Shown: piece by piece, positions 60,057-62,380 of the stretch | Position numbering within the stretch: position 1 is the stretch's first letter | How the letters are laid out: every line of letters begins with the position of its first letter | Assembly: GCF_017916325.1 (NCBI RefSeq) | Contig: NC_090164.1 | Location: 1,035,501 to 1,099,500, forward strand | Direction of reading: 5' to 3' | DNA: 64,000 bases | DNA from: Leishmania martiniquensis | Lineage: Eukaryota; Euglenozoa; Kinetoplastea; Trypanosomatida; Trypanosomatidae | Position numbers and translations under genes: made by a program | Notes under the pieces: generated by a model | Told to the model about the DNA's origin: nothing | The model's database searches: none | The model's input: the letters and a program-made list of their open reading frames with translations, nothing else

Positions 60057-62380
60057 ATGGCGATGGAGCGCGCGGCGGAGGCAGCGCTCATCGATAAAGC
60101 GTTTCCAAACTTCAACTTCTCCGCCGATGCCACGGCGTCTGCGGCACTGCGGAAGGCTACAGATGCGTTTTCGATGGATAACGCAGATGATGTAGTGAAG
60201 CTTGTCCACCAGCTGCTGGAGAAGCTTCTGCAGACAGAGCCGTCGGCGGCTGCGGCGTGGATTCAAGTTTACGTGTTTGGTTCTAGCGGTCTCGGTGCCG
60301 CAATCACGGGCAGCGACATCGATTTGTATGGTGAGCCATTTCCTTCTTTCTCTTTAGTTTCGTCTTTCACGTAGTGACGCGCCTCCCCCCTCCCCCCTCT
60401 CTCCCCAACTCGCTCAGTCCTCTCTTTCCTTTCTTTCCTCTCTCTCTGCAGCCCTCGCTTGCTTCACGTTTCGGCAACTGTCGTGGAACGCGGATAGGTG
60501 TCAGCGCAGCAGGAGAGGCGTGCCAGAGAAGGCAAGAGAGGGACAGAGTGGGCGTGGAATGCTTTGGCGACTGTGCCGCCTTCATGCTTAGACTACCCGT
60601 CTCCATCATTTCACTCTGTCGTTCGTCCCTCTCCTCCCTCTTCCCTCTCTCGGCTTCTCCCCATGCTCGGGGACACACAGCGTGCCTGATGGTGGCGATT
60701 GCGTGAGCTATCTCGTTTCTTCGAATCATGTGCCCGCGTCTCACCACTATGGATGACTCCCTTGCACGCCCACATGGCACACGACGATGACATCCTCCGA
60801 CTGCCCTCCGCTGCACGCGTCTACAATGCCCTGACACTGCTGCTGTGGCCCGTGCGAGCGTTGTGCCGTCGCTCTCGGGTCTTCTCTCCCCTTTCGTTCT
60901 CCTTCCTTCCCACACCCCACAAATCCTTTCACTCGAGGCGCAAACGAGGGCGGCTCGCTGTATTCTGCGTACGTCAATGTACCCGTCTTCATGGCGTATG
61001 GTAAGCGATAATATGCGACGAGGATGCACACATGCGGGCACACACCGCCCCGTTGTTGCTCGTTGCTCTCTCTCTGTCTCTCTTTCTCCCCTCTCTCTTC
61101 ACTCACTGTGCACCTGTCGTTGCTGAATCGCACTGCAAAGAATCGCGTTATGCTCTGCTTCTGTGAACACCTCCTTGTTCTTCCAAAAGTTTCCGAGCTT
61201 GGCAGAGGGGCGCTTGCAAGACGTCGTCGTTGTCACGTCAGCCCGCGTCCCCTTGATCAAGTTTTCGTACGATGGCGTTCATGTTGATCTCTTGTTTGCC
61301 TCGGTGGATATGCAGACCGCGCCCGGCACGAATGAGCTGCTGCGCGACGACTTTCTTTTCCGGGTGTCGCTGCCCTGTCGAGCAACCGTGAACGGGATCC
61401 GCACGATACTCGAGATTCGTCGCCGTCTTCCCCTTCCACTGAACGCCTACGCATGCGTGCTGCGCGCTGTCAAGTACTGGGCGGCTCAGCGTCAGGTCTA
61501 CGGGAACCTCTACACGTTCCCCAACGGCGTCTGCCTTGCCATCATGGTGGCCCGCGCCTGCCAGCTGTGCCCCGTCGCGGACAGCAGTGTCATTTTGCGC
61601 TTCTTCTTCTCTCTATACGTGTGGTGGTTCCTGCGTGACACGCGCATTGATCCTGTCTCTATTGTGCCCATGGATGAGAACGCGGCCGTGGCACGCGTTC
61701 CGGGGATGCCACCGCCGTGGGATGCCGTCTGGGACGCGACCGACCTGTTGCCGGTGCTGAACCCTGCGCGGCCCACGGTGAACGCCGCCCATGCGGTGGG
61801 CCGCAGCGGGCTGCAGCTCTTTTTTAAGGAGCTTCTCCGCGCTGAGCAGCTGTGTACCTCAGCCCCGTTGTCCTACGCGACCCTCTGGGAGCCGTACAAC
61901 ATACTCGATGAGCACCGCTTCTTTGTTGGTGTGCACATCTCGAGCGAGCACCGGTCACCTGCAGCGTGCGAGGACAATCTGAATGCATGGAAGGGGTACG
62001 TGGAGAGCAAATTGCGTATGCTTGTGTACGCGCTGGAGTGCGTGGCAGAGGTGCGACCATTTCCGCATCCGGTCACCGATGAGCCACCCCGGCAGGTGAC
62101 TCGGAGTGGGGTGACGCTGCACCGTCGGTCTCGGGGATTTTTTTTGGGGGTGTGTAACGGCAACAAAGGTGTGGCACGCAGCGATGTGGAAGCCGCGTTC
62201 AGCGAGTTTGAGTTTGCAGTGGCGGAGGGTACAATGGGGACTAATCCGTTTGAGTGGGACAGAACAGTCATGCTGGGGCCACGACTGTCCTTTTTCTCCA
62301 TCTACGACCCGTTGACACCAGACTCGCCATGCCAGGCGCTATACAGCGCCTGTGCCGAGATGATGAGGCCTGCGGTGTGA
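60057..62380 (+). CDS. PAP1: Poly(A) polymerase, two exons joined by cis-splicing
   Basis: Coding parts are 60057-60325 and 61141-62380 (502 residues). It adds A residues to RNA 3' ends using ATP. Exon 1 ends inside the nucleotidyltransferase signature: VFGSSGLGAAITGSDID, with Asp87 and Asp89. Joining at the proposed sites gives DIDLIALCSAS and then LFFQKF, as expected from canonical PAPs (DID-x-LC-x-A plus FF-x-x-F). Exon 2 holds the third catalytic Asp139 in VHVDLLFA, the central domain (LRAVKYWAAQRQVYGN, GVCLAIMVARACQL) and an RNA-binding-like C-terminal domain. In T. brucei and T. cruzi the PAP gene was the first shown to contain a cis-spliced intron, and a matching interruption here is strong support. 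Another family member (PAP2) usually exists elsewhere. Both exons are needed for a complete active site. Confidence 0.93.
60326..61140 (+). other. Cis-spliced intron in the poly(A) polymerase gene
   Basis: 815 nt, starting gtatgg at 60326 and ending gcaaag at 61140. The phase works: two exon-1 bases (tt) plus one exon-2 base (a) make a Leu codon. A competing gtgagc at 60331 leaves the wrong phase for this acceptor. Exon 2 cannot start before the in-frame TGA at 61124. A pyrimidine tract (about 61063-61110) and a branch-like tgctgaat near 61121-61128 precede the acceptor. The intron has stops in all frames and no coding-like content. Confidence 0.88.

What the first reader, a model, noticed from the sequence alone, without database searches (positions are those of the whole stretch)
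60326..61140. Cis-spliced intron inside the poly(A) polymerase gene
Cis introns are extremely rare in trypanosomatids. The two coding blocks only give a proper PAP active site when joined by removing 60326-61140. The joint codon and the resulting DIDLIALC segment match canonical PAPs, and the 5' site reads gtatgg. Seen: frames, phase, GT...AG ends. Known: PAP is the classic cis-spliced gene of trypanosomes. Inferred: the exact splice sites.
Basis: partly seen in the sequence, partly recalled or inferred. Interest (0 to 1): 0.85.

Follow-up and report, generated by a model that had tools for sequence, protein, structure and literature searches.

The report
Known intron in Leishmania poly(A) polymerase
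The gap in this Leishmania gene for a poly(A) tail-adding enzyme is almost certainly a real intron, one of the very few that trypanosome relatives still cut out by ordinary splicing, and it is already described in sister species.

Summary
Two coding blocks of a canonical-type poly(A) polymerase (60057-60325, 61141-62380) flank 815 nt with stops in all three forward frames, starting GTATGGTGAG and ending GCAAAG. Of 15 open GT/AG pairs in the stretch scanned, only 60326/61140 restores GSDID|LIALC, the junction in database proteins of L. mexicana, Leishmania sp. Namibia and Porcisia hertigi. In 9 of 9 homologs that read through the acceptor, the residue before the junction is R, as a kept AG would give. 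The genome is a Leishmania (spliced-leader array); the one other PAP_central match in it is uninterrupted at this place. This is the PAP1 intron of trypanosomatids, shown by RT-PCR in L. donovani (841 nt, PMC6467909). New here are only details: probable DBP2B and RBP20 introns in this genome share a GTATG donor, and the PAP1 intron holds a second donor-like site at 60996 next to an ATG. No RNA data were available.

The parts
60057..60325 (+). Exon 1 of PAP1 (first ATG to donor; the relatives P0001-P0003 start where the second ATG, 60063, lies); carries FGSSGLGAAITGSDID with the D-x-D of the active site
60326..61140 (+). 815-nt cis-intron
60326..60335 (+). Donor GTATGGTGAG, the 10-nt 5' element; place of the proposed U1 snRNA pairing
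   Evidence: PMC6467909 reports that the first ten intron bases are identical in L. donovani, T. brucei and T. cruzi, letters not printed in its text
60418..60451 (+). 30/30 pyrimidine tract (60418-60447) followed by GCAG: a possible cryptic acceptor inside the intron (inferred)
60996..61005 (+). Second donor-like site GTATGGTAAG, 9 of 10 bases like the true donor; ATG at 60991 would be in frame with exon 2 if it were spliced to 61141. Function unknown, may be chance
61067..61100 (+). Pyrimidine tract (29 of 30) of the true acceptor; no AG from 61023 to 61138
61123..61129 (+). CTGAATC, the one CTRA in 61070-61136, a branch-site candidate (inferred); YTNAY also fits at 61098 and 61102
61141..62380 (+). 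Exon 2 of PAP1: third catalytic Asp region (VDLLFA), PAP_central and RNA-binding domain

Best explanation
60326-61140 is the conserved spliceosomal cis-intron of trypanosomatid PAP1 (inferred ortholog of L. donovani LDHU3_29.3990, L. major LmjF.29.2600 and T. brucei Tb927.3.3160). Shown here: exon structure, phase, junction, GT/AG ends, the pyrimidine tract before the acceptor, and agreement of both junction sides with relatives at protein level. Inferred from relatives: U1 snRNP pairs with the extended GTATGGTGAG donor, U6 replaces it, the spliceosome joins the donor to the first AG after the pyrimidine tract, and SL trans-splicing adds the leader upstream of exon 1. Trans-splicing at intronic or exon 2 acceptors competes with cis-splicing. 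In T. brucei the RNA-binding protein DRBD3 (a PTB relative, recalled) supports cis-splicing, so the intron probably lets the cell tune PAP1, the enzyme reported there to tail non-coding RNAs.
For: Joined ORF, and 1 of 15 open GT/AG pairs gives the homologous junction. DIDL|IALC in 3 of 3 Leishmania/Porcisia database proteins that span it. Of 21 aligned homologs, 9 cross the acceptor as read-through models and all 9 have R there, 5 cross it with DL, 7 start downstream; P0018 and P0019 have only 3 residues upstream and look like close kin, so the 9 are not fully independent. The one exon 1 read-through ORF found, from L. utingensis, keeps DLYGE, in the window GAT TTG TAT GGT GAG. Yeast PAP 2hhp aligns through the junction. 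PAP2 in the same genome has contiguous GSDIDMVLIAPS. The exon 2 primer of the L. donovani RT-PCR matches at 61742-61761 with 2 mismatches, 0 expected. The intron is single-copy. Two other predicted cis-introns in this genome start GTATGTTGACG (DBP2B, 4596 nt) and GTATGTGTGAG (probable RBP20, 1944 nt).
Against: No RNA reads could be examined. U1 and U6 snRNA were not found in this genome (for U6 the tool said the empty answer does not show absence). The L. donovani forward primer found no match with up to 3 mismatches. A Crithidia mellificae paper reports the orthologs as contiguous coding sequence, and Phytomonas is said to lack the intron (passages), so the intron can be lost. The donor 10-mer is common genome-wide (52 places, reversed control 38). 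P0001-P0003 are database proteins, probably predictions, not cDNAs.
Confidence: 0.97

Rival explanations
1. Broken gene or assembly artefact: PAP1 interrupted by an unrelated 815-nt insertion, with the GT/AG ends by chance.
For: L. donovani PAP was first annotated as a pseudogene because of premature stops.
Against: The interruption lies at the same codon in relatives: 9 of 9 read-through models have R before the junction. The exons are conserved: 71/88 and 357/412 identical residues to L. mexicana. The intron has no copy elsewhere in the genome. RT-PCR in L. donovani.
Confidence: 0.02
2. The intron exists, but exon 2 is mainly used on its own, SL trans-spliced at or near 61140, and makes a short protein; cis-splicing is a minor path. 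(Not exclusive of the best explanation.)
For: Two SL sites lie in the L. donovani intron just upstream of exon 2, and RNA-seq coverage showed no clear decline along the intron. SL-to-exon 2 trans-splicing became more frequent on U1C loss in T. brucei (passage).
Against: After trans-splicing at 61140 the first ATG (61150) is out of frame and the first in-frame ATG is 61310; the listing, cut at 300 codons, shows no stop there. Such a protein lacks the exon 1 catalytic motif. Exon 1 is conserved as protein.
Confidence: 0.08
3. The interruption is an unconventional euglenozoan intron held together by RNA structure rather than a spliceosomal one.
For: Euglenids and diplonemids, also Euglenozoa, have such introns (abstract of PMC6221363 in the search listing).
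Against: GT/AG ends and the donor element are present, and the RNA fold is not unusual: z -0.78, 4 of 20 shuffles fold as well.
Confidence: 0.01

Closest known systems
PAP1 (LDHU3_29.3990) intron of Leishmania donovani, PMC6467909
   Same: Same gene by homology and a matching exon 2 primer site, similar length (841 vs 815 nt), contig 29 here and gene number 29.3990 there, extended 5' element reported
   Different: Other species; RNA evidence exists there, not here
PAP intron of T. brucei (653 nt) and T. cruzi (302 nt), Mair et al. 2000 (as described in PMC6467909; paper itself not held)
   Same: Same gene, GT/AG, 10 donor bases reported as shared with L. donovani
   Different: Length; internal sequence not compared here
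DBP2B and RBP20 cis-introns of kinetoplastids
   Same: Same rare class; a DBP2B and a probable RBP20 intron were found in this genome, both with donor GTATG
   Different: Other genes, longer introns (4596 and 1944 nt)

Membership tests
Trypanosomatid PAP1 cis-intron | Located in the intron-bearing PAP of the genome, at the codon after GSDID | tested here: met
Trypanosomatid PAP1 cis-intron | GT/AG ends with frame restored on removal | tested here: met
Trypanosomatid PAP1 cis-intron | Conserved ~10-nt donor element | tested here: inconclusive
   GTATGGTGAG present; agrees at protein level with the one L. utingensis ORF; the T. brucei letters were not readable in the held texts
Trypanosomatid PAP1 cis-intron | Conserved acceptor AG at the same codon across relatives | tested here: met
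   R in 9 of 9 read-through models, protein level only
Trypanosomatid PAP1 cis-intron | Removed from the mRNA in vivo | not testable with these tools
   No RNA data; shown in L. donovani
Trypanosomatid PAP1 cis-intron | Donor pairs with U1 snRNA of the species | tested here: inconclusive
   U1 gene not found
Canonical eukaryotic poly(A) polymerase | PAP_NTPase, PAP_central and RNA-binding domains in order | tested here: met
   71.0, 103.4 and 24.5 bits against cut-offs 27, 27.1 and 24, the last only just
Canonical eukaryotic poly(A) polymerase | GS...D-x-D plus third Asp (motif recalled) | tested here: met
   FGSSGLGAAITGSDID and VDLLFA, aligned to yeast PAP 2hhp
Unconventional euglenozoan intron | No GT/AG borders; stable structure bringing the junctions together | tested here: not met
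   GT/AG present; fold z -0.78

The most novel reading that the evidence does not exclude
The intron hides an alternative first exon. An SL leader trans-spliced at the intronic acceptor candidate (AG 60451) would start a transcript that is cis-spliced from the second donor GTATGGTAAG (60996) to 61141. That fuses ATG-GC to exon 2 and gives a 414-aa PAP1 (MAIALCSASVNT...) without the exon 1 active-site motif, a possible dominant-negative or RNA-binding form. For it: the 9-of-10 second donor has a chance of about 0.006 in simulated intron-like sequence, tested after the fact; the joined frame is open with one terminal stop; and the read-through models of Leptomonas pyrrhocoris (P0006) and one unnamed relative (P0007) have Ala-Tyr, compatible with GC|GTATG, at a usable phase upstream of the acceptor (my reading of protein letters). 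Against it: P0005 and P0012, the other two models with 20 or more residues upstream, lack Ala-Tyr (they may be too short to reach); near-matches to the donor are more common than expected in the whole window (7 against 2.5); and the SL sites reported in the L. donovani intron lie just upstream of exon 2, not near its start. The L. donovani RT-PCR does not bear on it, since its two primers were placed one in each exon.
Probability: 0.06. Interest if true: 0.5.

Novelty: already known. Interest (0 to 1): 0.17.

Why it matters
Cis-splicing is reported for only three genes in T. [quoted passage not shown] This copy is a further species for comparative work, and it shows why gene calls miss exon 1: of 21 aligned homologs, 9 read into the region before the acceptor and 7 start downstream of the junction.

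Tried and rejected
Alternative donors and acceptors: 15 open combinations, one matches the homologs. Nested genes: three intron ORFs (110 and 101 aa sense, 224 aa antisense) have no Pfam match at E<=0.01; the 93-aa sense and 128-aa antisense ORFs were not scanned. Known ncRNA: no Rfam family at gathering level in the window or in L030, L031 and L036, which hold the DBP2B and RBP20 loci; two sub-threshold matches on the other strand at E 0.08 and 0.43 are taken as chance. Cassette exon ending at 60995: all 9 acceptors that keep the phase leave 2 or 3 stops. U1 snRNA: Rfam model no match at E<=10; a guessed pattern gave 4 hits against 4 in the reversed control, with no tRNA found in any of the 4 fetched loci. 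U6: none, not informative. My first guess for DBP2B exon 1 (an upstream ORF) was wrong; the split lies after HRIG near the 3' end. Related DNA in viral contigs: none. A paper search for the donor letters: 491 papers hold a term, the 10 listed are unrelated by title. An AG-free stretch as long as the one before the acceptor is not rare (34 of 3582 gaps between AGs in the window), so I give it little weight.

Full report
What is there. The window lies on contig 29 of a 32.3 Mb, 41-contig genome. That genome carries a tandem array of the Leishmania 39-base spliced leader (letters recalled): 102 places, all on one strand; those listed are on contig 2 without mismatch. The nearest named PAP1 relatives are Leishmania sp. 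Namibia (69/88 exon 1 and 365/412 exon 2 residues identical), L. mexicana (71/88 and 357/412) and Porcisia hertigi (60/88 and 345/412). I call it a Leishmania and do not name the species.

The gene. Exon 1 (60057-60325) and exon 2 (61141-62380) join to 502 aa. The joined protein meets the Pfam cut-offs for PAP_NTPase (71.0 bits), PAP_central (103.4) and, only just, PAP_RNA-bind (24.5 against 24); the NTPase domain is split by the interruption. Yeast PAP (2hhp) aligns through the junction, E 4.7e-44. The only other PAP_central match found in the genome lies in a 755-aa open frame on contig 14 with uninterrupted GSDIDMVLIAPS, taken as PAP2.

The intron. 815 nt, 4, 5 and 5 stops in the forward frames and pyrimidine fraction 0.627 against 0.480 and 0.528 in the exons and 0.543 upstream; single-copy; ordinary fold (z -0.78). 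Donor GTATGGTGAG; acceptor CTGCAAAG|A after a 29/30 pyrimidine tract. One of 15 open GT/AG pairs restores the homologous junction.

Comparative test of both ends. Two protein searches returned 15 of 7997 and 20 of 7998 scored candidates (14 shared, 21 distinct). Of these 21, 9 read through the acceptor and all have R just before I, V or L, 5 have DL there, and 7 start downstream. R is what AG plus one exon base gives if that base is A or G. The upstream stretch is as short as 3 residues in two of the 9, and those two resemble each other. A further search with exon 1 read into the intron found 1 of 45 candidates, from L. utingensis; it shares DLYGE, which covers the donor element, and then differs more. 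No relative's DNA could be read: the one DNA search for relatives, in viral contigs, found nothing.

Same class elsewhere in the genome. A DEAD-box gene on contig 7 (minus, 156093-151498, 4596 nt) joins YVHRIG to RTGRAG; donor GTATGTTGACG, acceptor GTGCAG. I take it as DBP2B, since L. donovani has a 4470-nt intron in its RNA helicase gene LDHU3_07.0430. An RRM gene on contig 24 (minus, 673366-671423, 1944 nt) joins GSTII to VTHKRS; donor GTATGTGTGAG, acceptor CTACAG. I take it as the RBP20 ortholog because it is an RRM gene split in this way and the third reported intron gene encodes an RNA-binding protein; I did not compare it with T. brucei RBP20. Both are predictions without RNA data. All three donors begin GTATG.

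Literature. PMC6467909 (section 19 read whole; passages): L. donovani LDHU3_29.3990 has an 841-nt intron, shown by RT-PCR and three sequenced clones; the first ten intron bases match T. brucei and T. cruzi; two SL sites lie in the intron; coverage showed no clear decline along it. PMC4041458 (passages; part 1 of 2 of the discussion): U1C and U1-70K crosslink at the T. brucei PAP donor, and loss of U1C reduces cis-splicing and makes trans-splicing to exon 2 more frequent. PMC12592628 (passages): DRBD3 associates with the PAP1 intron and supports cis-splicing of PAP1, DBP2B and RBP20; PAP1 is reported to polyadenylate non-coding RNAs. PMC4552786 (passages): L. seymouri has both introns. PMC3990616 (passages) lists LmjF.29.2600 among intron-containing genes and reports the C. 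mellificae orthologs as contiguous. PMC3916237 (passages): Phytomonas lacks them. PMC2936537 (passages): only the two validated introns were detected in T. brucei. PMC10137940 (passages): only two cases reported to date. Kostygov et al. 2024, a survey of kinetoplastid introns, was seen only as a reference and is not held. Mair et al. 2000 is not held.

Open detail. At 60996 the intron has GTATGGTAAG, one of two GTATG in it, 9 of 10 bases like the donor; chance about 0.006 in first-order simulations of this intron, judged after the fact, while the whole window has 7 near-matches against 2.5 expected. ATG at 60991 would be in frame with exon 2 if that site were spliced to 61141 (414 aa). I rate real use at about 6%.

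Verdict. Observation confirmed, interpretation supported, already known in sister species; interest low.

Noticed in passing
window 60991-61005: Second donor-like GTATGGTAAG inside the intron, two bases after an ATG that would be in frame with exon 2 if spliced to 61141.
   Followed up: partly
window 60418-60451: 30-base pyrimidine tract followed by GCAG within the intron, a possible cryptic acceptor close to the donor.
   Followed up: partly
window 60367-61041, minus strand: 224-aa antisense ORF within the intron, no Pfam match at E<=0.01; probably chance in GC-rich DNA.
   Followed up: partly
L030/L031 (G000:C7:156093-151498, minus): Predicted 4596-nt cis-intron in a DEAD-box helicase taken as DBP2B, donor GTATGTTGACG.
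   Followed up: partly
L036 (G000:C24:673366-671423, minus): Predicted 1944-nt cis-intron in an RRM protein, probable RBP20 ortholog, donor GTATGTGTGAG.
   Followed up: partly
database proteins P0004-P0007, P0012, P0014, P0017-P0019: PAP1 homologs whose models begin just before the acceptor and miss exon 1 with its catalytic motif; likely annotation artefacts.
   Followed up: partly
window 57025-59121: Neighbouring 698-aa ORF with a C-terminal doublecortin domain (Pfam DCX, 23.4 bits, cut-off 22).
   Followed up: no
window 26015-27475 and 44821-45843: Phosphofructokinase and a CFAP96-like flagellar protein among other genes of the window.
   Followed up: no
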